The notes beneath the pieces were generated by a model. The model was not told the DNA's origin. It saw nothing but the letters and a program-made list of their open reading frames with translations, and ran no database searches. Both the position numbers and the translations under genes were made by a program. A stretch of 64,000 bases of DNA from Thiorhodovibrio winogradskyi (GTDB lineage: Bacteria; Pseudomonadota; Gammaproteobacteria; Chromatiales; Chromatiaceae): NCBI RefSeq assembly GCF_036208045.1, contig NZ_CP121472.1, forward strand, positions 2,553,531 to 2,617,530, written 5' to 3'. Every line of letters begins with the position of its first letter. Within the stretch, counting starts at the first letter, position 1. Shown in pieces: positions 17,810 through 64,000 of this stretch.

Positions 17810-18046
17810 GTGACAGACCATGAATCAAAGACTTCTAAATCCTGGTCGTCATCCGTTGTGCCAGCGAATGTAAAGGCGAATTAGACAGCCTTCTCGCCGA
17901 ACGGGTAAGATTCCGCCCTGGATCGGGTTTGGATCGGGAGGCTGTCGCGACCATCGGGGCTGGCTCGCGTACCCTGTTCGTCCAAGCAGGTTTTGTCCGC
18001 CTTCGCGCGATCCTGTCTCGCACCATTCTGCTTTCGGAGATTTCCT

Positions 18047-19201: not shown

Positions 19202-19275
19202 AGCAGCCTTTCTGATCGTCATTACCCATACTTCATCCTCAACCCCGCCATCGCCGTGCCAGCAAGGGCCAGTTC

Positions 19276-48900: not shown

Positions 48901-49411
48901 CTTGGCCGAGTTACGCAAGACCATTGCTGGGCGTTACCAGGGGCTTGAGGAGTTAACGCCAGATCGCCGGGGCTTGGGCGCCTTCATTCTCAGGTTGTGC
49001 GACAACCGCTATGACAGCGATACCGCTTGGCTCGAATCTGTCGCCACCCTCGTCGCCAATATGCCGCCGGCGAAATGGCGTGACGAACACCGTCGCGAAG
49101 CCGCGCTGCGCCTGCGGGCGCGAGCCGAACAGGTGCGGGACCTAGACTGTCTGCGCGGCGTTGCGAGTAATGCATCTAGCCCGCAGGCCGTGTTGCTAAA
49201 GCGCGTCCAATCTCATCAGGGTGAGATAAGCCATGTGATTCATCTCAGTAGCCAGGAGCAAGAGCGCGCCAGCATCAAGGCGCAGGACATTGCCAAACAA
49301 CTGAGTGACATCGGTCCGAACGAGCAGCTCGCCGTGATCGCCGCGCTGCTGGAACAACTGTCACCTCAAACCCCTCCCGCAGCAAGCACTGAAGGAATTG
49401 TCCATGACTGA
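45956..49411 (+). CDS. sspC: SspC-like P-loop ATPase of DNA phosphorothioation
   Basis: An 1151-residue ATPase starting with GTG overlapping the sspB stop. It has Walker A GPYGVGKS (residues 69-76) and a distinctive Walker B DELGKFLEYAA (D196), also known from BrxC/PglY-type ATPases of other defence systems. The remainder is largely helical, with no nuclease motif seen. In Ssp systems SspC provides ATPase activity with SspB and SspD. Its end overlaps sspD by 8 bp. Confidence 0.85.
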   Translation: MTNYIESPVLAECIEIESVYTRAINLARDGGALELIAAYRPTSRTRQCLSQIAAGLTAEPRPRALAAIGPYGVGKSAFALFAGALLSDPHSEAAQTAGRVLRGVDSELADQITNAIASSSGYLRVAISGLPDSLQRQFLLALASAAEQASLDARLREKLLSQAEAGPPMDEVVRLLKQVQNAWKTAGGQGVLIEIDELGKFLEYAAFHPERPELHLLQLLAEHSCEPEPIPVQIIVLLHQAFEHYGARLGTELRDEWQKVQGRFETIAFLETAEQALRVLAAAFVRKPKLQELPKDIRERLAHVTALLAEQGALPHGLESAEAEELFTRCYPLHPFSLLILPTLCQKNAQNERTLFSYLGSGEPFGLQERLGRLTLGEWIWPWDLYDYFILNQNAGLGGPFADHCWAEVVTALERLEISAEDPNGPDLIALLKTIGLFNLIGAQRGFKASPALLKEMFKQLPALLERLQACSAIHFRQFSQDFRVWAGSDFDLRAALAEAIAAQAGRSLADTLNALTPLKPIIARRVTIDNGTLRAFIPRFTAAERWKPAPANPQELTLWFYLASAQEAQPPADLPSGILAFCPFTERLRELIDEWMALCELPKQQAALHQDPVAAREHRAWLSHAEQEAHQIIRSLTAEPERLRWFSDGKEQEINHRRDLQALLSDWVERHYNQTPRLNNELINRDAPSPSANLGRKRLIAAMLGAADKPGLGIEKTPAEKSLYLNLLDATRLHREENGHFGIYPPEPGADGGGDPCGLRPLWDAINETLGQSGERQVPLTELYTNLSRRPFGVKLGSLPVLIIAYLIAHQREVALYQERVLCDSLTLDQAELLCRRPDLFALERFDLGGLRGELFDRYLQSIIGRVPDDPSLLGIVRPLVSFLNGLPDYSQHCTDLSERAKDVRRAIQQATSPGTLLFEDLPRACDIPPRGLINLERTALEDFLNHLIEALRELKYAYSALRDDFQRQLAQALLYDPPEDLAELRKTIAGRYQGLEELTPDRRGLGAFILRLCDNRYDSDTAWLESVATLVANMPPAKWRDEHRREAALRLRARAEQVRDLDCLRGVASNASSPQAVLLKRVQSHQGEISHVIHLSSQEQERASIKAQDIAKQLSDIGPNEQLAVIAALLEQLSPQTPPAASTEGIVHD

Positions 49412-50195
49412 CCTCGCCGCAAAACCACCTGTTCGCCATCTGCTTGGTCTCTCCGGTGGCAAGGACAGCTCCGCGCTTGCCATCTATATGCGTGACCGAG
49501 TGCCGGAGATGGAATATTTCTTTGCCGACACTGGGGCGGAATTGCCGGAGACTTTGGAGTTTATTGATTTGCTCCAAGATTATCTCGGAAAACCGATTGT
49601 GCGCTTGAATTCCGCGCGATCATTCGATTACTACCTGAAATTCCATAAGAATTATTTACCATCACCAAAGCAGCGGTGGTGTACATTCAACCTTAAGCTT
49701 TTACCATTTGAAGAGTTTGTCGGAAACGATAAAGTGATCTCCTATGTGGCTATTCGTGCGGATGAGCCAGATCGCGCTGGCTATATTTCCAGCAAACGGA
49801 ATATAAGGACGCGCTTTCCTTTCAAGGAAGACGGTCTTACTAAAGACGATATTCAGGACATACTCGAATCAGCTGGCCTTGGTATGCCGCGCTATTACGA
49901 ATGGAGAAGCCGGTCAGGGTGTTATTTTTGCTTTTTTCAGCGCCGTGAGGAGTGGGCCGGATTGAAACAATATCATCCGGATTTGTACGAGCGGGCAAAA
50001 GCCTACGAAAAAGCCGATGAGGAAACGGGTAAGGTATACACATGGAATCAATCTGGCACGCTCGATGAGCTTGTGGAGCGCGCCGAGAAAGCCGAGCCGG
50101 TGTCTCTAAAAAACAAGCCATCAAGGAAGCTTATCGATAGATTTGGTAACAGCGAAGATGATGAAGACCATGGTTGCATCCTTTGCAGTCTATAG
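49404..50195 (+). CDS. sspD: SspD-like PAPS-reductase-family sulfur transfer protein
   Basis: A 263-residue protein starting at ATG 49404 (GAAGGA upstream). It has the ATP-pyrophosphatase PP-loop SGGKDS (residues 17-22) and conserved cysteines in RWCTFNLK, SGCYFCFFQRREEW and the terminal GCILCSL, the pattern of DndC/SspD proteins that adenylate the DNA phosphate and pass sulfur. The DNA here is more AT-rich than in sspC or dptH, pointing to a different history. Only 2 bp separate it from the next start. Confidence 0.88.
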   Translation: MTDLAAKPPVRHLLGLSGGKDSSALAIYMRDRVPEMEYFFADTGAELPETLEFIDLLQDYLGKPIVRLNSARSFDYYLKFHKNYLPSPKQRWCTFNLKLLPFEEFVGNDKVISYVAIRADEPDRAGYISSKRNIRTRFPFKEDGLTKDDIQDILESAGLGMPRYYEWRSRSGCYFCFFQRREEWAGLKQYHPDLYERAKAYEKADEETGKVYTWNQSGTLDELVERAEKAEPVSLKNKPSRKLIDRFGNSEDDEDHGCILCSL

Positions 50196-50197
50196 CA

Positions 50198-52576
50198 ATG
50201 GAAAAAGATATAGAACGACTGTTCAAGGGTATCAAAACAGGTTCCTTACATGGGAAGCCAGCGCTACATAAACCGCTCCTTCTTTTGGTTGCGCTGGCCC
50301 GATGTGATCGGGACGAGCCGCGTATGGAAAGGTTCGTAGTATGGGATAGAGAATTAAAGACTATCTGTGCGGAATTCTATCCGGAAGCATTAGAAAACCA
50401 AAATACACATTATCCTTTTGGTAAGTTGGAAAATGATGGAATTTGGGAAATTGAGTTAAGTCAGGAACTCAAGCGTACTAGCGTTGGGCACTTGTTTCGA
50501 TCCGAGTTGATTGCTCGCAGCATTCGCGGTGGCCTAAAACAAGAAATATACGATGAGTGTCAGAAAGAAAAGAAAATCTATCATCAGCTTGCAGCGCTGT
50601 TGCTTGAGCGCTTCTTTTTGCCAGAGCAACACGAGCAACTCCGTCATTTCTTGGGGTTAAGCGCAAGATCGTCAGACGGCAAAGGGACGTCAGCAACAGC
50701 GACTCTCGGTTGCAGGAACCATGCTATGAATACTCAACAAGTAAATAATGTTGCTGAAACAGCGGCGCAAGAAACTCCGCATCAAAACCCTTTTGTTGCG
50801 TATCTCAACTCTCTGCATAACATCGGTGCATCGGGGGCGAATGCACTCGCTGAGTCGCAGGCGCTGAATCAGTATTTTGCCGAATTGTACGAGCCCTTTC
50901 CGGTCGTCGCTGATGTTATTCAAACACTTCGCGGCCCGACTGATCGTGTGGTGGTTCTGACCGGTCACGCGGGCGATGGGAAATCGACGGTTGCGCTCGA
51001 TGCGCTAAAACAACTGCGCGGTCTGCCAGCAAATCAGCCTTTGCAGAAAGCCCTGAAAGAACGTGAACACATTGATGATGCCCGTATCAGCGGACGCGGC
51101 ATTGATGTGATTAAAGACATGAGTGAGCTAAGTGGCGACCAGCGGCTGGAATGGCTGCGGCTTGCTTTTGGTGAGCCGGGTTCTTGGTTGATTGTGAGCA
51201 ACACCGGGCCGCTGCTGAACAGCTTGCGGGTTTTTGCCGAGGAGAGGGAAGCGCTCGACGGCATCGAAAGCCGCATTCTCAAGGCGCTGAATTTGCCCTA
51301 TGTCGATGGGGAGCTTGAATCTCACACTCTGTCGGTATTTCCCAAGGATCTGGTCATTATCAATATGACCAGGCTCGACAACGTGACTCTGGGCGCACGC
51401 ATTCTTGGGCGGATGGTTCGACATCCAGGCTGGGGAGCATGCGAGTCTTGCGCGATTCGCGAGGCATGTCCGCTGATTCTCAATCGCGATGCGGTTGCAC
51501 ACAACGGTGCGGCGACCGAAGAGCGGGTACGCTTGGTCTATCAGCGGTTGACGGCCTACGAGCAGCGCCTGACGTTGCGGCAGATGGTGGCTCACCTGGC
51601 GTTTTCACTGACCGGCGGCATGAGCTGCCAGGCAGCGCAGGAGTCAGTTGGCACTTCTACTGCGAAAGGCGCGGAACGCGGCACGGCTGGTCTCGAGAGC
51701 ATTCTGTTCAGTGAGACCTTTTTTGGCTATCGCATGGGCCAATACTGTCCGGATGCGAGGAATCTGCGCGCGGTCGAGCTTTTGCGCCGGCAGGTGTTTG
51801 GTGGTCCTATCGGGGCCGATTTTGCAGGTCAACTTGGTCGCGGCCAAGGCAGTCTGTGGGCCGAGTTGCCTCCTGCGTTGAATCACCTAAGCCGCTATTG
51901 GGCAGGCCGGGCCGGGGAATCCGTTGGCGTGCGCTGGCGTTTTGCCCAAAGGCGAATGCTTTATCTGTTTGGACTTTCCCGCGTAAATCAAAGCGCGAGC
52001 GCTCAAGTATTTCTAGGGTCGTTTCTACAGTCGCCGCGTTTACGAGACTACGACCGCTGGACGCAGGAAAGTCGTTTATCCCTGCATATCATCGAGCAGA
52101 AAAGATTGCGTGACGCCTGTCTGCGTGTCTTGCTAGAGATATTTTCAGGGTTTAGCGCCGGCCAGTTTTCTGCGCAGCATAGCCGCCTGTATTTGACTCT
52201 GCGCCGACCTGATCGGGCCGTTGTTCAGCCAACGCAGTTGGTCATGGGCACGCTGGACTTCGATCAATTCGAGCTTGGCTATGACTCGTGCCGAAGGGTG
52301 CCACAGCTCGTCTTTCCCCAAGGCAATCTCCGCTTAGATCTTACGCTTCCGCTGCTGGATTTCATTGAATTGCGCCACTGCGGCGAACTGGGGAGTGAGC
52401 TGTCGCAGATTCACTTAGCCCAATTGGAATGGTTTGGTGCCGAATTGTTGAAGTTCGCTTCACAATATGCGAACGATGCGGAAATTCATATTCTAAGAGC
52501 GACGATCGACGGTCAGGTCGAGATGAGTCGGTATTTTATCGATGAGGCTGCTCAGCGACTGGAGATCTACCAATGA
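50198..52576 (+). CDS. dptF: DptF-type restriction protein with an N-terminal sulfur-binding-like domain
   Basis: A 792-residue protein. Residues 1-150 resemble the sulfur-binding domain (SBD) that recognises phosphorothioated DNA in McrA-type enzymes: HKPLLLLVALAR (24-35), the YPF motif (72-74) and NDGIWEI (79-85). From about residue 177 it matches DptF, with Walker A GHAGDGKS (256-263), VIVSNTGPLLNSLRVF-type strands and the cysteine cluster WGACESCAIREACPL. An in-frame ATG at 50726, with CAGGAA 7 bases upstream, begins the DptF part, so two products are possible. The stop overlaps dptG (ATGA). The 50198 start has a weak ribosome-binding site. Confidence 0.8.
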   Translation: MEKDIERLFKGIKTGSLHGKPALHKPLLLLVALARCDRDEPRMERFVVWDRELKTICAEFYPEALENQNTHYPFGKLENDGIWEIELSQELKRTSVGHLFRSELIARSIRGGLKQEIYDECQKEKKIYHQLAALLLERFFLPEQHEQLRHFLGLSARSSDGKGTSATATLGCRNHAMNTQQVNNVAETAAQETPHQNPFVAYLNSLHNIGASGANALAESQALNQYFAELYEPFPVVADVIQTLRGPTDRVVVLTGHAGDGKSTVALDALKQLRGLPANQPLQKALKEREHIDDARISGRGIDVIKDMSELSGDQRLEWLRLAFGEPGSWLIVSNTGPLLNSLRVFAEEREALDGIESRILKALNLPYVDGELESHTLSVFPKDLVIINMTRLDNVTLGARILGRMVRHPGWGACESCAIREACPLILNRDAVAHNGAATEERVRLVYQRLTAYEQRLTLRQMVAHLAFSLTGGMSCQAAQESVGTSTAKGAERGTAGLESILFSETFFGYRMGQYCPDARNLRAVELLRRQVFGGPIGADFAGQLGRGQGSLWAELPPALNHLSRYWAGRAGESVGVRWRFAQRRMLYLFGLSRVNQSASAQVFLGSFLQSPRLRDYDRWTQESRLSLHIIEQKRLRDACLRVLLEIFSGFSAGQFSAQHSRLYLTLRRPDRAVVQPTQLVMGTLDFDQFELGYDSCRRVPQLVFPQGNLRLDLTLPLLDFIELRHCGELGSELSQIHLAQLEWFGAELLKFASQYANDAEIHILRATIDGQVEMSRYFIDEAAQRLEIYQ

Positions 52577-54186
52577 GCGTGAAAATTGAAGAGACCATGC
52601 CACTCCAAGAGCTTCTAGCTCCGTTTCCTTCGCAAGAAAAAGAAGACAGCAATAGCAAAAGCAATCCCGCGCTGCGTCTTTACGGTCGGCGTTACCATAA
52701 AGATCAAACACCCATCGAGTATCTCGCGGAGTTTCTTTTGGTTTTTGTTTCACCGAAGTGTAACCCCGATTCTGAGGAAAATGGCGAATTCAAATTTCGC
52801 GCCTGCGAAGGCATCGGACCTCTCGAAGAGTATTGGCCGAAGGATCGTGTTTCGTTAAAGCTGTTTGCTTTTTTCCCTTCTTCAAAGCTCGAAACTCGCC
52901 ATCCCGTTCATCGCCAAGCGTATCTCGCAGCTATTGATCAACTTCGTTCCGCAGTAAAGGGTACCCAAGCTGAACAAGAAGATACCGTGCGTCTCATTCA
53001 AAGCCTGTTTGGTGGCTTTGTTGGCGTTGCGAAAAATCGGACTTGGGCGACTCATACCTTTCTGCCTGTATCCAATATGCTGTTAGCCAGAGAGCTTGAT
53101 TGGCAGCATTCGAAGGCGTTGGGCAATCAGGAACTGAATGAATGGCATCAAGCTGAAGACTGTTTTGTCACGGATCGACATAACTTTATGGCTCGTGGTG
53201 GTGAACTCCTGTTTCTTCAATTAGCCAATCTTTTCAGCGATCCAGAAGCACCCGAGATTACTGAGATTGTTAAACGACCGGAATATAGGCATGTATCTCA
53301 TCTTAGGTTGCAGGAGATTGAACATCAGCTACAGGTTGATTTACGTGCAATTCTCGAAGATGCAATTCGCCCGCTGAATTCACTGGCCAATATGATTGAA
53401 CGCAAGCTTTGCGATTATGAATTTCGCAAACAGAAGGGTTCGGCAAAACTAGGCTGGGTCCCAGCTGTTTCAAGGGTTGAAGCGCTGCTGTTTGCCTCGG
53501 AAATGAACAATATTTGTTCCATGCCATTGAGTTCATTGGAAAAGCTTGATTTATTGCAAACGCTTTGTTCTTTCCATGTCTTGCGCAGCCTTTGTTTTCA
53601 GGCATCAAGGGCCGACAATCAGACAATCAAAACATCTGGTTTTACAGGAAATTATTGCTGGATAGCCAGTGATCCGTCAGCGCCGCCACGCACGGCGATT
53701 CGGCAATTGGCTGAAACAACGCTTGGTCGAATTGACGCGCTGCTTTATCGGGTATTGAGGCGCAAAGACTTGATGCCGCAAGGGGTCAAGTCAAGTATGA
53801 ATGAAGCAGATAAGAATGGCTTTGAGATTTTTAAGCGAATCGCAAAAAAAATTGGTCTTGTAATACCTCCAACAGGACGGGGCGAACGCTTTGTTCTAAA
53901 CCCCGGTCACTTGCGCTTTTTGGTAGCAGCTCTCGTCCGACCCGGCGAATACCTGCGCCTAAACGACTTCTATCATCGTGTTTTTGCGCATTACGGCATT
54001 GCGTTGGGCGGGGAGCCTTTAGCAACCGCCCAAGCATGGTCTGGCGGTAGCGAGCAGAAATCCTATGGCTTGGATGTCAGCATCGCTTGGGTGGAGGAAG
54101 CACTGCAACAGGGCGGCTTTTTGATCGAGTTATCGGATGCTGTCTCTATCGTGCATAACCCAGGCGCTGGGGAGGATCGATTTTGA
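52573..54186 (+). CDS. dptG: DptG-type phosphorothioation-dependent restriction protein
   Basis: A 537-residue protein, coupled to dptF by ATGA and to dptH by an overlapping TTG start. It has no catalytic motif I recognise; segments such as PALRLYGRRYHKDQTPIEYL and ESLFGGFVGVAKNRTW-like text (QSLFGGFVGVAKNRTWATH), and DRHNFMARGGELLFLQLANL match the DptG family by pattern. DptG is needed with DptF and DptH for restriction of unmodified DNA. The DNA is AT-rich relative to dptH. Identity rests partly on position. Confidence 0.8.
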   Translation: MSVKIEETMPLQELLAPFPSQEKEDSNSKSNPALRLYGRRYHKDQTPIEYLAEFLLVFVSPKCNPDSEENGEFKFRACEGIGPLEEYWPKDRVSLKLFAFFPSSKLETRHPVHRQAYLAAIDQLRSAVKGTQAEQEDTVRLIQSLFGGFVGVAKNRTWATHTFLPVSNMLLARELDWQHSKALGNQELNEWHQAEDCFVTDRHNFMARGGELLFLQLANLFSDPEAPEITEIVKRPEYRHVSHLRLQEIEHQLQVDLRAILEDAIRPLNSLANMIERKLCDYEFRKQKGSAKLGWVPAVSRVEALLFASEMNNICSMPLSSLEKLDLLQTLCSFHVLRSLCFQASRADNQTIKTSGFTGNYCWIASDPSAPPRTAIRQLAETTLGRIDALLYRVLRRKDLMPQGVKSSMNEADKNGFEIFKRIAKKIGLVIPPTGRGERFVLNPGHLRFLVAALVRPGEYLRLNDFYHRVFAHYGIALGGEPLATAQAWSGGSEQKSYGLDVSIAWVEEALQQGGFLIELSDAVSIVHNPGAGEDRF

Positions 54187-57100
54187 ATTTGTTCAACGCA
54201 ACGCTTACGGATTATGTCACCAGCGAATGGGATCGTGTGTTGAGCGATCCGGGCGGTCCGCGCGAGGCGCGTTTCATCGTGCAGAGCTTGGCGCCGGATA
54301 ACACTTTCGCGTTCTTCGAGGCGTTGGAGCAACACGCGGACAAGTGGCGAGCGAGCACGCGGATCGAATGCCATTTTCGGGTAGCAACCGGTCTTTGGGA
54401 AGACTGGTATCGCGGCGGGCGGCGGGCGGAACTGGATCAGGACATGAAACGGCTCGGCGGCGTGGGGGAGGATGGCGAGCGGCGCTGGATCGATCAAGAT
54501 GATCGCTTGACTTGGTATCGCAATCGCACCCGCAGCGCTGGGGATGATGGGCTGGTGGTGGTGCTGGTCGGGCTGAATCATGCTTCGGATCAGGGCGGGT
54601 TGGCGAGCTTCCATTGCGTCGATGAGTCGCGCATCTGGCAGGCAATGGGGCAGTGTTTTCTGCCGTGGGTGCATCGGCTGAACGAAGATTTTGCTTTGGA
54701 GGCAACGCCGAGCGAGATGGAACGCTTGGACGCGGTCTTGCAGGAGTTGTTCGCGGTGCGGCCCCGGCAGTTGGAGCGGCTGGCGGGCTTTCTGGAGGCA
54801 GAAGTCATTCAGGATGGCCGCGATCTGTTCAATTTGACGGAGGTGACGGAGCGCTTCTATGCGGCGCTGCCGTTCTGGAATATTCCGCCGTTCTTCGACA
54901 TCGGTTCGGCGAAGGCGAGCCGTGCGCAGATCACCGCGGCGGCGGATTTCATCTCCCACCGGCGTTTCAAGAGCAAGGCGGAGCAGAAAAAGGCGGTCAA
55001 GAAACTGGAGGATGCGCTCGCGAATGGCGGGCTGGCGGTGCCGCGCACGTGCGAGGATCTGCCGCTCTATGAAACGGCAGAGGATTATCTCGATACCCTG
55101 AAGACCTTTATTTGCGATGGGGACACCCAGGCGCGTGATCAGTTATTGCAGACCGATCTCGGGCCGGTGCTGAAATTGCTGAAGCAGCGGGAATCCAAGC
55201 CAAAAGCACCTAAGAAACCCACGCGACTAAAGCGGCTCAGTCTGGAGAGTTTGCTTGAAGCGGTGTGGCAGACGCTGAAGGATGTCGCGCGAACGCCGGG
55301 CGAGCCGCTGTGGGAACAGTTGCAGGGAATTCGCATTGAGGTGCAGAGCTTTCAGCATGATCTGAAATCCGACGATAGCGGTGGTGTTGGCGCCAATCTG
55401 CTCGCGCAGGAATTGCTGCAAAGCTGTCTTGGCGGGCTGCCGGAGCTGTTCGAGGGGCTGGAGTTGCGCCTGCCGGTCGATAGCGATCAGGCCGAGCGCT
55501 CGCCGTCAAGCTGGGAGCGGGTGGTGCCGATTCGGCTGCATCTGCCGCTTGCGGAAGGAGACGAACCGCCACTGAAGTACGGCACCAGCCGGGCGCGACC
55601 GCATTTGCAGTTTAAGGTGTTCGTCGATCTGATCGACGATGAGGAGGGCTATGCGCGGCCCTTCCAGTGGGCGCTGGAGCCGACCGCGCCTGAGCGGGTG
55701 CTGATCGAGTGCGCGCGCACGGTGCTGGCGCGCTGGAACGAGGCACCGCAGCCGCATCAGCTCTTGCCGGCTTTTCGCATCCCGGATGTAGAGATGACGG
55801 CGCTCTTTTATGCCGCCGATGCCGAGGAGGCCAATCGCCTGGTCGGCCATGCGCTGAACCAGCTTGAACTGCTGAATCTGTTCGATGGGCTGTCGCCGGC
55901 GCAGGTCGATGCGCAACTCTGGGAGCAGGTGCTGGCCTTGTCAGCGGCGTATCGAACCTGGCTGACCTATTGTGTCGAGCAGGGTTTCTATCGGGCGATG
56001 GCGGATTATTTCCTGCCGTTGTTGCAGCACTATCAGGCGCTGGCCGCGCGGGTGCTGGATCCGCGATTACTCGGTAGTCAGGAGCTGTTGAACCGGCTGT
56101 ATAAGGCGTTTCTGTTGGTTGATCGGCAGATGGCACCGCAGGATGGGTTTTTACATTCGGCGCTGGTGCTCGGCATCAGCCCGCCGGTGCTGGAGCTGAT
56201 GGCCGGGCGGCTGCGCTTTCTCGGCGATGGCTTCCCGGAGGTGGCAGCGGCCTTGGTGCTCGGGCGCGAGGCTGACGCGGCTTTCGGGCAGTTGCTGAAA
56301 CTGGTGGAGATGCATCGCCCGCTCGCCGGGCTGGTGGTCGATCAGCACAAACACTTATCGGCGGAGATCAAGTCCTTCGGGCTGCTGCATTATCTCGGGG
56401 AGAAACGCGCGACGGCGAAGAGTCTGGCGGTGCAGACGCTGCTGCGCGATGAGGAAAGCGATGACGATGATGATGTCAGCGACAGCATCGCGGCGACCGA
56501 GGAACAGGAGATCGTGCTGCGGGTGCTGGAGGATTATCTTCAGCTTTATCCCTTTGCCGAGGATGGGCTGCGCATTCTGGCGCTGCATGTGGCCGAGCTG
56601 GGGACCATTCTCTCGGGTGTGCACCTGTTCCTGAAACGCTATCTGAAAAAGACCAGCAAAGATTGGCCGGCTTTTCATTGCGAGGTCATGGTCTATACCA
56701 CCTCGTCCTCGCCCATGGCGATGGAAAACCGGCTCGCGGCCTGGCGTCATCAGGTGGCAGAGACTTATCGCGAAAGTGGCCGTCCGCTGGTGCTCTCGGT
56801 CGGGCATCGCTACGCGCCGGGGCGCGAGGCAATGATCGAGCGGCTCGGTCAGGAGGCGCGGCTCTATGACATTGCCTTTTTGTTCCGCTTTCTGGAGGGC
56901 CAGCTTGCCGGGGAGACGGAGCCGGCGCTGCCGTTTGCGTTCGATTTTAATGCAACCAACATCGGGCAGTTTCCTATCAGCGAGTATCCGCGCCCGATTC
57001 GCGCGACCGACCCGACCCGGCGGCAGAGTCTGCTGAGTAATCGACGCCTTCGCATTCAAACCCATCATGCCGATCTGTCGGCGCGGCTGCGGCATCCGCA

Positions 57101-59603
57101 AAATGGGCATCGGGATCATCTGGTGTTTGGGCGGATTGATTACACTCCCTGGCAGCCAGTGGTGCAGACGCTGCATCGCCATGCGCAATGGGTAGCCTGC
57201 ATTGATCCCTTTATCGACAAGCAGTTGCTGCGCGTGTCCGAGCACGGGGATGAGCGCAAGATTGTCGGCTTCACCTCTGGGCTGGGCGATTATGGCGAGC
57301 TGAATCTGTCCATTTCCACTGAGCAGGACACGCTCAAGGCGCTGGCCGAGCGCGTGCATGGCGAGCTGATCGAGCTTCTGCCCTATCAGGATGGCCCGGC
57401 GCTCCAGGCGATGTCCGCTCGGGTGGTGGCGGAGGCTGAGGAGATCATCGGCTTGTCGTCCTTGCGTGCCGTGGTGGGGCAGGGCGAGCGCATTCGCGAG
57501 GTGGTCGGTTTCGCGGCCATTCGCCGCGCGCTGGCGGCACCGCCAGGGACGGTGAGCCAGTTATTGCCGGCGGATGCGCTGCTGCATTGGTTTGCGGACA
57601 GTGCATTCACGCATCGGCCCGATCTGCTGCAATTGTCTCTTGAACTGCGCGGGGATGATCTGCCCTTGGTGCATGCGACTGTGATTGAGTGCAAATTCGC
57701 GCTGCACAATCCGGTGCATCTCGCGCATGCGAGCGATCAGGTGCAGGACGGATTGGCGCATCTGACGCAGCTTTTCGCGCCCAATCGCGACGATCTGCAT
57801 CGCTACAGCTTTGATCGCCGTTACTGGTGGGCGCAGTTGCAGCGCGCGCTCGCCTCGCGCGTGGTGGTGAATCTGCCCGAGCAGGCATGGCTGCAGCTTG
57901 ATCAGGCACTGGAGAATCTGGCCGAGGGCTATTTCGAGATCGCCTGGCAGGGTGCGCTCTTTACTTTCTGGACCAATGAGCCGGGTGCGGAGCCGGTGCT
58001 CACACCGCTCGCGCTGCCGGCGGGGGTGATCCGTGCGCCGTTGCGCTCGGATGATGATTTCGTCATCTATCAGGTCGCGCTCGGCCATGTCGGGCTGATG
58101 CGGTTGTTCGATGAAACCGCCCCACTCGGGCAGATCGATCTTGGCGATGCGGCCGCGCGAGTGCGGGCAACGGCGGTGCGTGCGGGCAGCGGGGAGGCCG
58201 AGGTGCCGCCGCTGACGGCAGAAGCCGGGGCAGAAGCGGCGCTGGCCGCCGCAGAAACGGGCCGTCGGGACAATGTGGTGTCGCTGGCGGATCGTCCGGG
58301 CTTCCGAACCGTTCCGCCGCGCCCGCCGAGGTTGGTCAGCCATCGCCCGTTACCCGACAGCAGGGTGGCCGATCCCTATCAGGGCAATCTGGCGGTGGCC
58401 TATCCTGCTGATCAGGAGCGGGATGCCGAGAGAGAGCCGCCGCTGCGCATCGAGTCGGTGGTGGCGGCCAGTGCCGAGGTGCCGGAGCGCTTGCTGCTCG
58501 GCACCAAAGCCGACAATACACCGGTGTATTGGCATTATGGCCATGAGCGCCTGCCGAATCGTCATCTGCTGGCCTTTGGTTCCTCCGGGTCTGGTAAGAC
58601 GTATGCGATCCAATGCTTGCTCGCCGAGATGGCGGCGCAGCGCCAGCATGCGCTGATCGTCGATTACACCGATGGCTTCCTGCCGGGGCAGGTCGCACCG
58701 CTGTTCGAGACGATGGCGGCACCGCACAGCCATTTTGTCCGTACCGCGAAGTTGCCCTTGAATCCTTTCCGCCGCCAGCAGCTCGTTGTCGATCCCAATG
58801 CGCCGCCGGTGCCGGAGAACCCCTATGAGGTTGCGACCAGGGTCGCGAGCATCTTCAGCTCGGTTTACGAAAGCATGGGCGACCAGCAGTTTTCCACGCT
58901 CGTCAGCGTGTTGGAGGCTGGCGTTTCGAGCGGTGGCGGCTTTTCGCTGTCCTGCTTGCCGGAGCGCTTGCGCGACCACAATCAGTATGGCGTGACCCTA
59001 GCGAGCAAATTGGAGCCGCTCATCAAGGCGGATCCGTTCCGCGAGGGCGATGGTCCAGCCTGGCAAGACATGCTCGCCGACCCTGAGCATTGGGTGCAGA
59101 TTCTACAATTGAAAAGCCTGGGCCGGGAAATCCAGAAGCTGGTCACCGAGTTCGCGCTCTGGGATCTGTACGACTATGCAGGCACCCACGGCAGCACCCA
59201 GCGCCCGATTCCGGTTGTGCTAGATGAAATCCAAAACCTTGACCACCGCCCCGATTCGCCCATCGACAAGATGTTACGCGAAGGGCGGAAATTCGGCTTG
59301 TCGTTGATTCTGGCCACCCAGACGACCAGTAATTTCAACAACGAACAGCGCGACCGCCTGTTCCAGGCGGCGCACAAGCTGTTCTTCAAGCCGGCGGATA
59401 CCGAGATCGACCGTTTCGCCACCCTGCTCGGGCAGATCACCAGTCAGTCGAAAGCCGATTGGGCCCAGCGCCTGGCGCAATTGAAACGCGGCTATTGCTG
59501 GTCCCTGGGGCCGGTGGAAACCAGCAGTGGCGCGTTAAAGACGGTGCCGCTCTTGGTGAAGGTGAGTGCGCTGGAGGAGCGAGTGTTTGATGCAAGCAAT
59601 TAA
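54183..59603 (+). CDS. dptH: DptH-type large restriction ATPase with HerA/FtsK-like C-terminal domain
   Basis: An 1806-residue protein, typical size for DptH, starting at TTG 54183 with GGAGG 6-7 bases upstream. The first 1300 residues are mostly helical, with no motif I can name; an acidic serine/aspartate stretch lies near residues 758-770 (DEESDDDDDVSDS). The C terminus is a HerA/FtsK-type translocase: GSSGSGKT (1466-1473, K1472), LIVDYTDG, the Walker B segment PIPVVLDEIQNLDHRP and SLILATQTTSNFN. It probably drives DNA translocation or damage during restriction. Its end overlaps the next gene by 14 bp. Confidence 0.88.
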   Translation: MNLFNATLTDYVTSEWDRVLSDPGGPREARFIVQSLAPDNTFAFFEALEQHADKWRASTRIECHFRVATGLWEDWYRGGRRAELDQDMKRLGGVGEDGERRWIDQDDRLTWYRNRTRSAGDDGLVVVLVGLNHASDQGGLASFHCVDESRIWQAMGQCFLPWVHRLNEDFALEATPSEMERLDAVLQELFAVRPRQLERLAGFLEAEVIQDGRDLFNLTEVTERFYAALPFWNIPPFFDIGSAKASRAQITAAADFISHRRFKSKAEQKKAVKKLEDALANGGLAVPRTCEDLPLYETAEDYLDTLKTFICDGDTQARDQLLQTDLGPVLKLLKQRESKPKAPKKPTRLKRLSLESLLEAVWQTLKDVARTPGEPLWEQLQGIRIEVQSFQHDLKSDDSGGVGANLLAQELLQSCLGGLPELFEGLELRLPVDSDQAERSPSSWERVVPIRLHLPLAEGDEPPLKYGTSRARPHLQFKVFVDLIDDEEGYARPFQWALEPTAPERVLIECARTVLARWNEAPQPHQLLPAFRIPDVEMTALFYAADAEEANRLVGHALNQLELLNLFDGLSPAQVDAQLWEQVLALSAAYRTWLTYCVEQGFYRAMADYFLPLLQHYQALAARVLDPRLLGSQELLNRLYKAFLLVDRQMAPQDGFLHSALVLGISPPVLELMAGRLRFLGDGFPEVAAALVLGREADAAFGQLLKLVEMHRPLAGLVVDQHKHLSAEIKSFGLLHYLGEKRATAKSLAVQTLLRDEESDDDDDVSDSIAATEEQEIVLRVLEDYLQLYPFAEDGLRILALHVAELGTILSGVHLFLKRYLKKTSKDWPAFHCEVMVYTTSSSPMAMENRLAAWRHQVAETYRESGRPLVLSVGHRYAPGREAMIERLGQEARLYDIAFLFRFLEGQLAGETEPALPFAFDFNATNIGQFPISEYPRPIRATDPTRRQSLLSNRRLRIQTHHADLSARLRHPQNGHRDHLVFGRIDYTPWQPVVQTLHRHAQWVACIDPFIDKQLLRVSEHGDERKIVGFTSGLGDYGELNLSISTEQDTLKALAERVHGELIELLPYQDGPALQAMSARVVAEAEEIIGLSSLRAVVGQGERIREVVGFAAIRRALAAPPGTVSQLLPADALLHWFADSAFTHRPDLLQLSLELRGDDLPLVHATVIECKFALHNPVHLAHASDQVQDGLAHLTQLFAPNRDDLHRYSFDRRYWWAQLQRALASRVVVNLPEQAWLQLDQALENLAEGYFEIAWQGALFTFWTNEPGAEPVLTPLALPAGVIRAPLRSDDDFVIYQVALGHVGLMRLFDETAPLGQIDLGDAAARVRATAVRAGSGEAEVPPLTAEAGAEAALAAAETGRRDNVVSLADRPGFRTVPPRPPRLVSHRPLPDSRVADPYQGNLAVAYPADQERDAEREPPLRIESVVAASAEVPERLLLGTKADNTPVYWHYGHERLPNRHLLAFGSSGSGKTYAIQCLLAEMAAQRQHALIVDYTDGFLPGQVAPLFETMAAPHSHFVRTAKLPLNPFRRQQLVVDPNAPPVPENPYEVATRVASIFSSVYESMGDQQFSTLVSVLEAGVSSGGGFSLSCLPERLRDHNQYGVTLASKLEPLIKADPFREGDGPAWQDMLADPEHWVQILQLKSLGREIQKLVTEFALWDLYDYAGTHGSTQRPIPVVLDEIQNLDHRPDSPIDKMLREGRKFGLSLILATQTTSNFNNEQRDRLFQAAHKLFFKPADTEIDRFATLLGQITSQSKADWAQRLAQLKRGYCWSLGPVETSSGALKTVPLLVKVSALEERVFDASN

Positions 59604-60498
59604 CGATAACACGCTTTTTCATACAGAAGCTGCGAACAGCTTACGCTTGCCGCTGAACTTCCCGCAAACCTTCCTTCCAGAGCGGCGTCTGCTTGCGGCG
59701 CTGCTTGAGTTTGCGCAAGGGTCAGGTGTCGGTGACAAGGAGACCATCAGCGCCGCGACCGGAATTCCAACTGGACGTTCGACCGGTAAAGTCGTGCCGC
59801 TGATTCATTATGGTCTGGGGATGGGGTTGTTGACCGCCGCGCGAGAGGGGAGTCAATGGCAGCTTGAGCTGACGACGCTCGGCGCGCAGGTGCGCCGCGA
59901 GGATCCTTACCTCAGTGAGCCTGTGACCCAATGGCTGCTGCATTTGATGCTGTGCCGACGGGCTGATCTGGGTCAGCCGGCGAGCGGCGTTGCGGATGCC
60001 TGGTTCCTGCTGCTCGCCGAGGGACCCTTGCTCTTTGGCCGCGAGTTTCGCGTGGCCGCTTTCCATCAGGCTCTGGCGCAGCGCCACGGCGGACTCGGGT
60101 ATCTCAAAGGCCTGTCGACGCTGGTGCCGAGAATGTACACCGAATCCGCTTGTTTTGGCGATGCCGGTGTGCTGCTTCCCGTTATTGGGGAGGAGGGGGC
60201 CTTTGTTCGTGCGAGCGCCCCTTGTGATGGCAGCTTTTATCCGGCTTATGCGCTCTCTCTGTGGCAGCAGTGGGATGTGCTCTTTGGCGATCACACGCAG
60301 ATCAGCTTCGACGAGTTTGATCGTGCGACGCGTTGGTCAGCCCTGCTCGGTTGGGGGCCGGAGGCCAGGAGCGATTGGTTGCAATGGCTGGTCGGGCAGG
60401 GCTGGTTGCAATTGGATCGCTATACCGGGTCGCCGGTGCTGTTGCGCCTGATCGATAGCGAACGGCTCACGGCGTCTTTGTATTCAGGGTTGGTTTGA
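59590..60498 (+). CDS. Second, divergent DUF4007/SspB-like protein
   Basis: A 302-residue protein from ATG 59590, inside the end of dptH, with GGAGGAG about 10 bases upstream. It shares with SspB the motif DPYLSEPVTQWLLHLML (D105), comparable to DPYLEDDATLWIIHWL (D93) there, and the order of a winged-helix-like N-terminal part (ISAATGIPTGRSTGKVVPLI) before it. The HETFPLR signature of SspB is replaced by FPQTFLPERRLL, so it is a paralogue in a different subfamily. Coupled to dptH and followed by an SspC-like ATPase. Function unknown; a partner or sensor role is inferred. Confidence 0.65.
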   Translation: MQAINDNTLFHTEAANSLRLPLNFPQTFLPERRLLAALLEFAQGSGVGDKETISAATGIPTGRSTGKVVPLIHYGLGMGLLTAAREGSQWQLELTTLGAQVRREDPYLSEPVTQWLLHLMLCRRADLGQPASGVADAWFLLLAEGPLLFGREFRVAAFHQALAQRHGGLGYLKGLSTLVPRMYTESACFGDAGVLLPVIGEEGAFVRASAPCDGSFYPAYALSLWQQWDVLFGDHTQISFDEFDRATRWSALLGWGPEARSDWLQWLVGQGWLQLDRYTGSPVLLRLIDSERLTASLYSGLV

Positions 60499-60524
60499 TT
60501 CTGAATGAGGAGAGGGAAGAGGCC

Positions 60525-63500
60525 ATGCAAATCGGCAACCTGGTGCATTTCAATGAGGAGCGTTTCTTCGACGGGGCGGTACAACTGCGCTGGGTGCAGG
60601 AACGCCCTGAGCGCGCGCGTGCGGCAGCCGAGGCCTTCGTCTTCCATGGCCCGAAGTTTCACGGTGCTAGCGATGCGGTGGCGGATGGTATCGAGAGTGC
60701 CTATCGACTGACGGATACGGCAAGCTTCGTTGCTGGACTCGTCGGGTCTTTCAATGCCGGGCAGCGCGGCGGCGAGGTCAATCCTTTCTGTCTGACGGTG
60801 GCGGGCTATGGCACCGGTAAGTCGCATCTGGCCACCGCGCTGGCCGCTTTGCTTGGCGCGCCGGGTGAGCCGCCCGCCCGGCAAGTACTCGCGCATCTTG
60901 CCGAAGCCGACAGGGATCTTGCCCGTCAGATCGAGACCGGGCTCGCTGAGCTGAAGCACCCGGTGTTGGTGCTTTGCCTCGATGGGATGGCCGGCTTTCA
61001 TCTCGGGCAGGCGCTGAATGCGGCGGTACTCGCACGCTTGGCGCAGTATGGTCTGGATGCCGGCGCGATTCGCGAACTCTCGCCGCGTTTTCAGGTCGCC
61101 GAGCAGTTCGTGCAGCGCAATTATTCGCTGCGCACCGATGCTTTCTCGCAGCGGCTGCCCGGTCTGGATTTGGAGTCTATCGTCGCCCGTTTGCGCGAGC
61201 AAGATGACACCGTCTATGCGGAGGTTGATACCCTCTATGCGGAAGCCAACGGTATGCCGATTCCGGCAACAGGGCAGGAGTCGGCGCAGGATTTGATCAA
61301 CACCCTCGCGGATGTTTATTGCGGAGCGGATGGTCCCTTCGCGGGGGTGTTGATTCTGTTCGATGAGTTTGGGCGTTATCTTGAATATGCCGCCGAAAAA
61401 CCACGCTTGGCCGGCGATGCGGCCTTGCAGCAGTTGTATCAGGGCGTGCAGGACAATGCCGCGAAGGTGCGCTTTCTCGGGCTGATTCAATACGAGTTAA
61501 AAGCCTATCTGCGACGTTTTGGCAGCGCGGATCTGCGCCATTTACAGCGCTACATTACCCGTTATGACGCCGCCGAAAAGCGCTATCTGTCGACCAATCT
61601 GGAGACCTTGTTCGCGCACATGATTGGCAAGGATGCCGCTGTCGAGACGCTGTGGCAGCCGACTGAGGCGGTACGCGCGCAACAGTTGAGCTGGCAGCGC
61701 CTCAGCCGTGCTTTGCCGGGTTTTGACCGGCTGCCGGTGTGGGCTGATCCACAACGCTTCGCGCGGGTGATCGTTGCAGGGGCCTGGCCGCTGCATCCGC
61801 TGGCGACCTGGTTCCTGACTCGACAGCGCGATGTGGTGCAGTCGCGCTCGGCGCTGACCTTTATCAAAGATGTGATTGGCGCTATCGCCTCTGAGACCGC
61901 AGTACAAGCCGACGGACGGCCACGCCAAGTGAGCGCGGCGGAATTGGTGTTGCACAGTTTACTGCCGGAGCTGATCGCCGCCGAGCAGCAGACCGGTTCC
62001 ACGGTGGCCGAGACCTTGCAGATGCTGCTGGAGAAATTCCGCGCTCATCTCGGTGACGAAGAGCGACGAGTCCTGGCTGGCACGGCGGTGCTGGAGAAGA
62101 TGCGCGTTGGCAAGCAAACGCTCGCCGAGGCCGATGCGCTGCTTGCCGAAGCGACAGCACTGCTGGAGCCAAGCGTCAAGATTGCCCTCGCGCGTCTGAC
62201 CGATGAGTTGGGTGCGCTGGAATGGAATGCCGATCTCGGGCAGTACGAGCTGATCGCCGATGCCTCCACGCGCGGGCAGTTCCAGCACTGGCTGCGCGCG
62301 CGTCTGGCCGCCGTGACGGCCGAACAGGCGCGGCAGTTGTTTGTGGCACGTGCGGCGGCTGTGGTGTCGGATCTGGGCGACCGGGAAACGGACTTTGCCC
62401 AGCGTCGGAACATTGCCACGCCGGACTGGTGCTTTGCTTCCCAACTCGCGCATCGGCACAGCCTAGCCAAGGCGCTGGAAACGGCCTTTGCCGACTGGAA
62501 GGTTGCGGTGGGGCCAAGAGATCCGAAAGGCCGGCTGATTTTTCTGTATCTGCATAGCGAGGACGATCAGGCTGAGATCGATGCGCTGGTGTGCGCGAAT
62601 TTTCAGCAACAGTTGGCGCAGCACCGCCTCGACCTGGCGCCCATCTGGGTGGTGGGTGTTGCCGACGAAGATGGGCGCATCGCGGCGCAGCTTGGGCGCT
62701 TGCAGGTGTTTGATGATCAGTTGAGCGCGGATGATCAGGAGCGGTTTCGGCGCTTTCTGCCTGAAGAACGCCAGCGCGCCACGGAGGTGCTGAAGGCGGC
62801 GGTGCAGGAGACGATCCGTGCGCGCCTGTATTGGGTGGCGGGCTTGACGGAGTTGCCCCAAGGTCGGCTGAATCAGGCCGGTGCCGAGATTTTTGCCCAA
62901 GTCTATCCTAAGGCGCTGCCCTTTCCCTTTGACGGCTTTGCCACCAGCGCCGGCGGCGGTCCGGCCGATGCGGCGCAGTTGACGCGCGGGCTGATCGCCC
63001 ACCAGGTCGATGGCGCCTGGGTGCAGGCGCAACCCAAGCGGCTGCAGAACCGGGTGAATACGCTGCTGGTGCAGAGTTGGCGTGCGCTGCCGAGCAGCGG
63101 GCAGCTGGCTGAGCCAAAGCAGGAGCAGGTGAAAGTCGCCTTTGAGGCACTGAAGCAGGCCCATGGCGAGCAGCCAGAGCGCTCGCTGTGGGAATCCTAT
63201 CGCGAACTGATCGCGCCGCCCTATGGCATGAACGCAGCCTCGGCGGGCATTTTGCTCGGGCTGCTGATCGGTGGCCAGCATCCACCACGCCGCTTGGAGC
63301 AGGGCGGTGAGCTGGTTGCGGCGGCGGATTGGGTGACAGCCGCCTTTCCGGTGCAACGCGGTCGGCATCAGCTTGAGCTGGCGCTGCTTGAGAAGACTCG
63401 GCTGCGTTTTCTGGCCGAAGATAGCGAGGGGCGCTGGCGGGAATTCCTTACGCGCTGGGAGACGGAAACCCGCTATGAAAAGTTGGTTGAGCTGGCGCGG

Positions 63501-64000
63501 AATGCCGAAAAGATGCGCCGGGCTGATCCTATCCCGGAGATCCTCGAAGGTCGCATTCCCTATCTGGTGGATAAGTCCACTGAAGCCGAGCGACACTTGC
63601 GCGAGTTTCGCGTCCAGATCGAAGGCTGGGAGCAGCAGCTTGAGCGCGCCGCGCGGCAGAATCAGGTGGGCGAGCTACTGAAGACTGCCGCCGCGCTGGC
63701 CCGCGCACGCGAGGATGCGGACGACGAGCAGCGCTGGCCCGCGAGACTGGGCGAGGATTGCGAGAAGCTGCTGCTGATCGGGCGCGAATTGGTCGGCGAG
63801 CACATTGGCGACTGGATTCCCCGCCAAGGCTGTCAAAATGTGACCGATGTCGGCGGATTTCGCACCCGCATGGACAAAGCGATCAAAAGTCTGCGCCAAC
63901 TCGGTTTCACGACCGAGGCCCAAGCGCTCGAAGAGCAGGCCAATCGCGCCATCATGCAGGTCGAGAACCGTCAGCAGTTTCGACTCATCCTCGACGAGAG
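60525..64000 (+). CDS. Second SspC-like P-loop ATPase, cut by the window end
   Basis: A frame of at least 1158 codons from ATG 60525 (AGGAGAGGGAAGAGG upstream), open to the window edge. Walker A GYGTGKS is at residues 94-100 and Walker B DEFGRYLEYAA starts at D280, nearly the DELGKFLEYAA of SspC. A long helical C-terminal region follows, including charged coiled-coil-like sequence (EGWEQQLERAARQNQ). It begins 26 bp after the second DUF4007-like gene, so the pair repeats the sspB-sspC order. BrxC/PglY-type ATPases share this signature, so it could belong to another defence type. Confidence 0.72.
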   Translation, partial: MQIGNLVHFNEERFFDGAVQLRWVQERPERARAAAEAFVFHGPKFHGASDAVADGIESAYRLTDTASFVAGLVGSFNAGQRGGEVNPFCLTVAGYGTGKSHLATALAALLGAPGEPPARQVLAHLAEADRDLARQIETGLAELKHPVLVLCLDGMAGFHLGQALNAAVLARLAQYGLDAGAIRELSPRFQVAEQFVQRNYSLRTDAFSQRLPGLDLESIVARLREQDDTVYAEVDTLYAEANGMPIPATGQESAQDLINTLADVYCGADGPFAGVLILFDEFGRYLEYAAEKPRLAGDAALQQLYQGVQDNAAKVRFLGLIQYELKAYLRRFGSADLRHLQRYITRYDAAEKRYLSTNLETLFAHMIGKDAAVETLWQPTEAVRAQQLSWQRLSRALPGFDRLPVWADPQRFARVIVAGAWPLHPLATWFLTRQRDVVQSRSALTFIKDVIGAIASETAVQADGRPRQVSAAELVLHSLLPELIAAEQQTGSTVAETLQMLLEKFRAHLGDEERRVLAGTAVLEKMRVGKQTLAEADALLAEATALLEPSVKIALARLTDELGALEWNADLGQYELIADASTRGQFQHWLRARLAAVTAEQARQLFVARAAAVVSDLGDRETDFAQRRNIATPDWCFASQLAHRHSLAKALETAFADWKVAVGPRDPKGRLIFLYLHSEDDQAEIDALVCANFQQQLAQHRLDLAPIWVVGVADEDGRIAAQLGRLQVFDDQLSADDQERFRRFLPEERQRATEVLKAAVQETIRARLYWVAGLTELPQGRLNQAGAEIFAQVYPKALPFPFDGFATSAGGGPADAAQLTRGLIAHQVDGAWVQAQPKRLQNRVNTLLVQSWRALPSSGQLAEPKQEQVKVAFEALKQAHGEQPERSLWESYRELIAPPYGMNAASAGILLGLLIGGQHPPRRLEQGGELVAAADWVTAAFPVQRGRHQLELALLEKTRLRFLAEDSEGRWREFLTRWETETRYEKLVELARNAEKMRRADPIPEILEGRIPYLVDKSTEAERHLREFRVQIEGWEQQLERAARQNQVGELLKTAAALARAREDADDEQRWPARLGEDCEKLLLIGRELVGEHIGDWIPRQGCQNVTDVGGFRTRMDKAIKSLRQLGFTTEAQALEEQANRAIMQVENRQQFRLILDE

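What the first reader, a model, noticed from the sequence alone, without database searches (positions are those of the whole stretch)
59590..64000. Second SspB/SspC-like pair appended to the restriction end of a phosphorothioation operon
The operon opens with sspB-sspC and closes with a divergent DUF4007-like gene plus a large P-loop ATPase. Both members share signatures with the first pair: DPYL..TxWxxH in the DUF4007-like proteins, and DE(L/F)G(K/R)(F/Y)LEYAA in the ATPases. They are translationally coupled to dptH. Known layouts are SspBCD plus SspE or SspFGH, and Dnd plus DptFGH; I do not know of one with a duplicated B/C pair after DptH. The pair may read modification state, supply a second specificity, or switch restriction on.
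Basis: partly seen in the sequence, partly recalled or inferred. Interest (0 to 1): 0.85.

Follow-up and report, generated by a model that had tools for sequence, protein, structure and literature searches.

The report
Restriction module with own SspBC-like pair
In many unrelated bacteria, the part of a sulfur-based DNA defence system that attacks foreign DNA carries its own distant copy of the two-protein machine that the sulfur-writing part uses to find its target, a layout I could not find described.

Summary
Downstream of sspBCD and an SspFGH-like cassette lie B2 (59590-60498) and C2 (60525-64000, stop at 65396 beyond the window). B2 is a divergent SspB/DUF4007 relative: profile match E 7e-17, predicted fold matching the SspB crystal structure at Z 21.1 over 276 residues. 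C2 is a divergent SspC/BrxC-type AAA+ ATPase with intact Walker motifs.

The pair is not a local add-on. F-G-H-B2-C2 recurs in several phyla. Sampled through G, 9 of 11 loci of this FGH clade carry the pair; 0 of 10 loci of the canonical SspFGH kind do. B2 and C2 vary together with G and H (r 0.86-0.96) far more than with SspB/C/D (0.42-0.53), and sspBCD modules have been swapped between the two FGH types. The pair therefore belongs to the restriction side.

Most likely it is a dedicated site-finding/licensing machine for FGH; this function is inferred. The closest parallel is the DndD-DndE pair and its nuclease-side duplicate PbeC-PbeD. My searches of the held papers found no description of the layout.

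The parts
45039..45959 (+). sspB: DUF4007 / SspB, modification side (the first 'B')
   Evidence: Pfam DUF4007 229 bits, PADLOC SspB 1.4e-74
45956..49411 (+). sspC: ATPase of the modification side (the first 'C')
   Evidence: PADLOC SspC, E 0
49398..50195 (+). sspD: PAPS-reductase-like sulfur transferase
   Evidence: PADLOC SspD 1.2e-105; ATG at 49407 is a likelier start
50174..52576 (+). F: SspF-like P-loop NTPase with an N-terminal sulfur-binding domain (about residues 21-166); ATG at 50198 likelier start
   Evidence: PADLOC SspF 9.9e-27; NCBIfam NF045808 1.4e-21, 76.9 bits, below its cut-off of 180; McrA 5zmo 4.1e-8
52573..54186 (+). G: SspG-like
   Evidence: PADLOC SspG 1.2e-14
54183..59603 (+). 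H: SspH-like; PD-(D/E)XK-like signature (D1131, D1147, E1169-x-K1171, Q1186) and C-terminal HerA/FtsK ATPase
   Evidence: PADLOC DndH 4.5e-50 and SspH 4.3e-26; residues kept in at least 97% of 44 and in all of 9 H proteins of the two types
59590..60498 (+). B2: second, divergent SspB-like triple-winged-helix protein; overlaps the H stop by 14 nt
   Evidence: PADLOC SspB 4.1e-6; hhalign to SspB 7.4e-17; fold Z 21.1 to 6lb9
60525..64000 (+). C2: second, divergent SspC/BrxC-like AAA+ ATPase; continues past the window to 65396. Residues after about 1505 are an extension absent from the six other homologues
   Evidence: PADLOC SspC 1.4e-16; hhalign to SspC 5.8e-30; N-terminal 930 aa match BrxC at Z 18.5; alignment

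Best explanation
B2-C2 is a standing part of a distinct clade of SspFGH-type restriction module (F-G-H-B2-C2). It is the restriction side's own version of the SspB-SspC site-finding machine. Shown: homology and fold of both proteins, intact ATPase motifs, conserved gene order and overlap across phyla, co-inheritance with G and H rather than with SspBCD, and absence from the canonical SspFGH loci examined. Inferred: C2 forms an ORC/Cdc6- or BrxC-like ATP-driven assembly on DNA, B2 gives it sequence or structure recognition through its winged helices, and together they find target sites and license or deliver the FGH complex (H carrying the putative PD-(D/E)XK nuclease and HerA translocase) on DNA lacking phosphorothioate, while SspB-SspC-SspD mark the host's own sites. 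In this genome the sulfur-binding domain at the start of F may read the mark.
For: Homology: (20 of 20 C2 proteins, own included, hit an SspC model). Fold: B2 model pLDDT 93.2, SspB 6lb9 Z 21.1, next FokI 8.4; C2 1-930 model pLDDT 86.5, pTM 0.57, BrxC Z 18.5, archaeal ORC2 13.6. ATPase motifs: K99, D280, E281 in 20 of 20. Linkage: H found upstream of C2 in 52 of 62 loci and B2 in 58 of 62, partial frames counted; B2 starts within 16 nt of, or overlaps, the H stop in 41 of 49 loci where both were called. Sampling through G instead of C2: 9 of 11 strong-G loci (own included; in G026 on two contigs) have B2 and C2; 0 of 10 weak-G loci examined, 8 of them beside sspBCD (1 of 11 not fetched). Two inheritance blocks in 21 loci without fused SspD: sspB/C/D r 0.69-0.83, G/H/B2/C2 0.86-0.96, across 0.41-0.53. 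Tree of G+H: 8 canonical loci all without the pair, 36 of the other clade all with it except G448, most of the 36 having been found through C2; on the SspC tree the two types interleave (at least 4 changes).
Against: No experiment and no complex prediction; the role is inferred from relatives. G448 keeps sspBCD, F, G, H and the methyltransferase without B2/C2 and shows no B2 or C2 remnant at E <= 0.01, so the pair can be lost. G091 lacks H as well. Canonical SspFGH protects from phage without such a pair in the cloned genes (PMC8092258, sections read). With fused SspD included (25 loci) the blocks are less clean: sspB-sspD r 0.57 lies below the cross values of 0.60-0.75, while G/H/B2/C2 stay at 0.89-0.97. 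On the SspC tree the observed 4 changes equal the lowest of 1000 shuffles (mean 7.5), so writer and attacker types are still loosely linked. A residual B2-SspB correlation after controlling for H (0.23, p 0.003, 29 loci) vanished with corrected distances (0.11, p 0.12, 24 loci), so there is no sign that B2 tracks SspB's specificity. Several residues invariant in my SspB set (R19, W22, K25, N52, M53) are not kept in B2.
Confidence: 0.52

Rival explanations
1. B2-C2 is a second modification specificity: it shares SspD with SspB-SspC and puts phosphorothioate at another motif or on the other strand.
For: B2 has the SspB fold and C2 the SspC relationship; SspB and SspC are the target-handling partners of SspD in the known system (PMC12707154 passages). 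One SspD gene lies in this operon and could be shared.
Against: B2/C2 are inherited with G/H (r 0.86-0.96), less with SspD (r 0.43-0.46). sspBCD modules are exchanged between FGH types while B2-C2 stays with one FGH clade. Residues invariant in SspB are lost in B2.
Confidence: 0.13
2. B2-C2 is a brake: it binds FGH or unmodified host sites and prevents FGH from damaging the host until infection.
For: SspFGH alone damages E. coli cells without phosphorothioate (PMC8092258), so a safety device would be useful; the coupling to H is tight.
Against: G448 keeps F, G, H with intact nuclease and Walker signatures and has no B2/C2. The canonical loci examined manage without one.
Confidence: 0.17
3. B2-C2 is itself an effector: B2 nicks DNA as SspB is reported to do, and C2 drives it along DNA, giving the module a second way to damage unmodified DNA.
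For: SspB is reported as a nickase (PMC9240713 and PMC7188994 passages). The equivalents of SspB D93 and H106 are invariant in B2 (D105 and H118, 35 of 35).
Against: The SspB catalytic residues were not available to me. The equivalent of invariant SspB H13 is Pro in 16 of 35 B2 sequences, this one included, and His in 15. H already carries a conserved PD-(D/E)XK-like signature.
Confidence: 0.13
4. B2-C2 is a passenger: an unrelated defence pair that happens to sit in the operon.
For: Other genes do insert at this place, for example BrxD-like ATPases and a BrxHI-like helicase in L076.
Against: Conserved order with overlapping starts in several phyla and closely parallel histories with H (C2-H r 0.95-0.97).
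Confidence: 0.05

Closest known systems
SspABCD-SspFGH (Wang et al. 2021, PMC8092258)
   Same: sspBCD next to F, G, H; H with C-terminal FtsK/HerA and the same PD-(D/E)XK-like residues; F, G and H profiles match those of G386/G265 at E about 1e-16 to 1e-27, G only in its C-terminal part
   Different: Three restriction genes; no B2/C2 in 10 of 10 weak-G loci examined; F/G/H form a separate deep clade; no sulfur-binding domain found in F of the 9 canonical-type loci listed
PbeABCD / CxC ABC ATPase-DndE systems beside Dnd (Rakesh et al. 2024, PMC10853773, section 16)
   Same: The site-scanning pair of the modification module has a paralogue on the nuclease side (DndD-DndE and PbeC-PbeD)
   Different: There the pair is an ABC ATPase plus ribbon-helix-helix protein; here it is an ORC/Cdc6-type AAA+ ATPase plus a triple winged-helix protein, joined to FGH
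BREX-Related Capture (BRC) system (Rakesh and Krishnan 2026, PMC12839542, section 36)
   Same: HerA/FtsK translocase together with a DUF4007 protein and a BrxC-like ORC/Cdc6 ATPase
   Different: BRC has PglZ and DUF6079, and no phosphorothioate genes are listed among its seven components; none of 20 C2 proteins hit DUF6079 at E <= 0.1, and no operon protein hit PglZ
BREX type 4
   Same: SspB/SspC/SspD homologues (DUF4007, BrxC, PAPS reductase; PMC12839542 passages)
   Different: PglZ in all and BrxL in 96% of the taxa surveyed there; no operon protein here hits either. No second B/C pair is mentioned in the passages I saw
SspB (PDB 6lb9, 6juf)
   Same: Fold of B2 (Z 21.1, 276 residues); shared T-F, D-P and W..H positions
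   Different: 15% identity; B2 has its own invariant G-x-x-x-G-K motif where SspB has G-x-G-x-N-M-V

Membership tests
SspB / DUF4007 | Match to the Pfam DUF4007 model at its gathering score | tested here: not met
   B2 18.9 bits against 27
SspB / DUF4007 | SspB fold (three winged-helix units) | tested here: met
   6lb9 Z 21.1, rmsd 3.5, 276 aligned; hhalign 98.8%, E 7.4e-17
SspB / DUF4007 | Nickase activity and its residues | not testable with these tools
   Residues are not given in the passages I could read; activity needs an assay
SspB / DUF4007 | Residues invariant in SspB (16 sequences) | tested here: inconclusive
   Equivalents of D93, H106 and F16 kept in 35 of 35 B2, of T15 in 29 and of W103 in 28; R19, W22, K25, N52, M53 not kept
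SspC / BrxC-type ATPase | Profile match to SspC | tested here: met
   20 of 20 C2 proteins hit PADLOC SspC PDLC02779; hhalign 99.8%, E 5.8e-30 over 777 columns
SspC / BrxC-type ATPase | Intact Walker A and B | tested here: met
   GYGxGK(S/T)H and DE(F/L)G in 20 of 20
SspC / BrxC-type ATPase | ORC/Cdc6-BrxC fold of the N-terminal part | tested here: met
   BrxC 9zll_D Z 18.5, 456 aligned; archaeal ORC2 Z 13.6
SspFGH system | F, G, H next to sspBCD | tested here: met
   sspC and sspD in 19 of 19 further stretches fetched, sspB in 18 of 19
SspFGH system | Three-gene restriction cassette | tested here: not met
   Five genes F-G-H-B2-C2
SspFGH system | Full-length PADLOC SspF/SspG/SspH matches | tested here: inconclusive
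   Partial matches only, best E 9.9e-27 (F), 1.2e-14 (G), 4.3e-26 (H)
DptFGH / DndFGH | Match to curated DptF/DptG/DptH models (that NCBIfam holds such models is recalled, not shown by a call) | tested here: not met
   No such NCBIfam hit at E <= 0.1 for F, G, H; the HerA part of H does hit PADLOC DndH at 4.5e-50
BREX type 4 | PglZ and BrxL | tested here: not met
   No PADLOC hit to either among the 10 operon proteins
BRC system | DUF6079 ATPase and PglZ (that Pfam holds DUF6079 is recalled) | tested here: not met
   No DUF6079 hit in 20 C2 proteins; no PglZ hit
PbeABCD | CxC ABC ATPase with DndE (whether PADLOC holds Pbe models was not checked) | tested here: not met
   No DndD, DndE or Pbe hit among the 10 operon proteins

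The most novel reading that the evidence does not exclude
Phosphorothioate defence of the Ssp kind has a second architecture in which writer and attacker each own a paralogous AAA+/triple-winged-helix site finder: SspB-SspC for writing, B2-C2 for attacking. The attacker thus judges sites by itself and can be combined with different writers, as the swapped sspBCD modules suggest.
Probability: 0.45. Interest if true: 0.76.

Novelty: new variant of a known kind. Interest (0 to 1): 0.62.

Why it matters
I found no account of how SspFGH-type complexes find unmodified DNA in what I read. This clade has a defined, removable pair of genes that is the obvious candidate for that step, natural loci with it (most of the clade) and without it (G448, and canonical SspFGH), and a known relative (SspB-SspC) to compare with. 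It also repeats, with other proteins, the logic proposed for Dnd/Pbe systems, where the scanning pair exists once for writing and once beside the nuclease (PMC10853773, section 16). If the pair sets the attacker's target, writer and attacker specificities could be studied apart.

Tried and rejected
Rejected: B2/C2 as a chance or local feature. Rejected: H as DptH by curated models. Rejected: membership in BREX 4 or BRC. Dropped: a claim that B2 co-adapts with SspB; partial Mantel 0.23, p 0.003 with raw distances (29 loci) fell to 0.11, p 0.12 with corrected and trimmed distances (24 loci).

Led nowhere: the PADLOC SspH model matched 353 of 369 genomes and 8 of 14 control genomes, mostly through its C-terminal part in frames of about 770 residues, which I take to be FtsK. 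Plasmid searches found one weak C2 match (Thermomicrobium roseum plasmid, 27.9% over 26% of the query) and none for G. PHROGs: no hit for six operon proteins. The B2 and C2 profiles found no SspB or SspC in the PDB by sequence.

Rows dropped: for distance tests and trees I left out L090, L064, L076, L085 and L103 (the same contigs as G741, G343, G122, G070 and G075) and also L097; L087 was left out as well; loci with short or missing genes were left out too. One search kept L087. still held both G741 and L090, which are one locus. G512 (weak G match) was not fetched. In one search a locus was labelled by the presence of B2, with G448 and G091 set apart by hand. All gene calls in scripts are longest-ORF calls; distances between genes inherit that. 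The C2-based scan finds only loci with C2, so the with/without counts rest on the G searches. The sspD search took 27 of the 53 loci without sspBCD genes in the flank; stretches were then fetched for 19 of its 22 positive genomes. In the family searches some matches are cross-matches to SspB or SspC themselves (for example G096, G127; G116).

VIA-align and Foldseek lists for C2 show BrxC and ORC; no SspC structure was listed.
Full report
The window lies at 2553531-2617530 of a 5.48 Mb contig. I took the stretch beyond its end, because C2 is cut at 64000. The genes on the + strand are sspB, sspC, sspD, F, G, H, B2, C2, then a DUF3553 gene (L004:6992-8221) and a TIGR04096 methyltransferase (L004:9058-11730). 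L004 position 1 is window 58471.

The observation. B2 begins at ATG 59590 and overlaps the H stop by 14 nt. C2 most likely begins at ATG 60525 and ends at 65396. The shared motifs quoted are present. BLASTP between the two pairs is weak (E 2e-4 and 3e-4), but profiles settle the matter: B2 against SspB E 7.4e-17 over 270 columns, C2 against SspC E 5.8e-30 over 777 columns. All 20 C2 proteins scanned, the own one included, hit an SspC model.

Fold. AlphaFold2 gives B2 at mean pLDDT 93.2. Its best PDB matches are the two SspB entries (Foldseek E 5e-7; VIA-align Z 21.1, 276 residues, 15% identity), far above FokI at Z 8.4. The first 930 residues of C2 (pLDDT 86.5, pTM 0.57) match BrxC best (Z 18.5) and ORC/Cdc6 proteins next. 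The Walker motifs are kept in 20 of 20. B2 keeps the equivalents of SspB D93 and H106 in 35 of 35 but has lost others that are invariant in SspB, and has its own invariant G-x-x-x-G-K motif. It is a distinct, constrained paralogue, not a spare SspB.

Distribution. In the bacterial family of the window, C2 is matched in 21 of 146 genomes and B2 in 15 of 146, own genome included, partly by fragments and partly by cross-matches to SspB or SspC. The order sspBCD-F-G-H-B2-C2-methyltransferase is seen in the own genome, G138, G070, G122, G036 and G075 (G075 is cut at the contig start and its F lies in two frames; in G036 sspC and H each lie in two pieces), with cut or decayed copies elsewhere. A scan of GTDB genomes with the C2 alignment gave 62 loci in Gamma- and Betaproteobacteria, Desulfobacterota, Bacillota, a planctomycete and others; some are the same contigs as the G genomes. 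H was found upstream of C2 in 52 of 62 and B2 in 58 of 62, partial frames counted; of the 10 loci without H, six have under 2.2 kb of sequence before C2 and four (L091, L097, L118, L121) do not. B2 lies within 16 nt of, or overlaps, the H stop in 41 of 49 loci where both were called. Of 27 genomes (out of 53 loci without sspBCD genes in the flank) searched for sspD, 22 hold one at E <= 1e-6, one of them weakly; 5 do not. The 19 stretches fetched around such sspD genes all hold sspC and sspD, and 18 hold sspB. The module is thus tied to Ssp phosphorothioation.

Is the pair obligatory? Searching through G, which does not presuppose C2, gave 11 loci with a strong full-length match and 11 with a weak C-terminal match. 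The strong ones are this clade: 9 of 11 have B2 and C2 (in G026 on two contigs). G448 has sspBCD, F, G, H and the methyltransferase but no B2/C2; G091 lacks H too. The weak ones are of the canonical SspFGH kind (G386 and G265 match the PADLOC SspG model at 6e-205 and 5e-200); of 10 examined, 8 of them beside sspBCD, none has B2/C2, and one was not fetched. Two of the ten, G539 and G790, show no sspBCD in the stretch and are only loosely of this kind. In a tree of G plus H the 8 canonical loci form one deep clade and the other 36 another; G448 sits inside the second, next to L067, which has the pair, so it is a loss.

Which side does the pair belong to? Distance matrices of 21 loci fall into two blocks: sspB/C/D with r 0.69-0.83 among themselves, and G/H/B2/C2 with 0.86-0.96; across blocks 0.41-0.53. 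With four loci of fused SspD added (25 loci) the G/H/B2/C2 block stays tight (0.89-0.97) and cross values are 0.60-0.75, but sspB-sspD drops to 0.57, so the writer block is less clean there. On the SspC tree the restriction type changes at least 4 times among 46 labelled tips (8 canonical, 38 of this clade), with two mixed clades at support 1.0. Four is the lowest value of 1000 shuffles (mean 7.5), so the linkage is loose rather than absent. B2 and C2 therefore travel with the attacker more than with the writer. I looked for a further bond between B2 and SspB and found none that survives corrected distances.

How it most likely works. Known: SspFGH damages DNA without phosphorothioate and lowers phage replication (PMC8092258, sections read). 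Shown here: H of both types shares a PD-(D/E)XK-like set (D1131, D1147, E1169, K1171, Q1186; kept in at least 97% of 44 and all of 9 sequences) and a HerA ATPase; F in this genome starts with a sulfur-binding domain. Inferred: C2 assembles on DNA as BrxC/ORC-type ATPases do, B2 recognises the site, and the pair loads or licenses FGH at sites without the mark. That step is the least certain one. The rivals are a brake, a second writer and a nicking effector; each has a clear test.

Comparison with what is known. The nearest system is SspFGH, from which this differs by two genes and a deep split in F/G/H. The nearest idea is the duplication of the DndD-DndE pair on the nuclease side (PbeC-PbeD; PMC10853773, section 16). 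A DUF4007 protein, a BrxC-like ATPase and HerA also meet in the BRC system (PMC12839542, section 36), with PglZ and DUF6079 and with no phosphorothioate genes among its listed components. Searches of the held papers for SspFGH, DUF4007, SspB with nickase, SspB with SspC, TIGR04096 wording, SspF/G/H, and phosphorothioation with BrxC and HerA found no description of this layout; I judged most hits by their listing, and read passages or sections of seven papers (PMC8092258, PMC10853773, PMC12839542, PMC9240713, PMC12707154, PMC7188994, PMC13251355) and no supplement. Most subscription papers and all bioRxiv preprints are missing from that library. I rate it a new variant of a known kind.

Noticed in passing
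window 50198-50780 and F of L083, L093, L095, L101, L102, L168: The front end of F is exchangeable: a sulfur-binding domain here and in several relatives, a protein-kinase domain in L083, L093, L095, L101 and L102 (F cut at the locus start there), NERD plus kinase in L168 (G741), and no such extension in others. This looks like a slot for different triggers.
   Followed up: partly
L004:9058-11730: A TIGR04096 'phosphorothioation-associated' methyltransferase follows the module in many loci and also accompanies canonical SspFGH in G028, G590, G715 and G874. Its role is unknown.
   Followed up: partly
L076:1711-8736 and 14535-19974: In Thiocapsa imhoffii three BrxD-like ATPases and a BrxHI-like helicase sit between H and B2, and a periplasmic-binding protein plus a hybrid histidine kinase sit between C2 and the methyltransferase. 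L060 and L092 have genes of similar length at the first place.
   Followed up: partly
L004:6537-8221; L052:8498-10194: The last 110 or so residues of this C2 are absent from the six other C2 proteins but form a separate small frame next to a relative of the DUF3553 gene in G076 (73% identity). A small two-gene unit seems to have been fused onto C2.
   Followed up: partly
L166-L167 (G091): sspBCD, a separate 188-aa frame matching the sulfur-binding domain, F and G, but no H, B2 or C2; frames of 779 and 479 aa follow instead.
   Followed up: no
L220-L223: In Ruminococcus and related Bacillota the sspD frame is 576-590 aa, about twice the usual length.
   Followed up: no
L046-L049, L053-L056: Decayed copies of the operon in relatives (G118, G131, G081, G102, G038, G071), often with pieces of C2 or the methyltransferase left, suggest frequent loss.
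   Followed up: no
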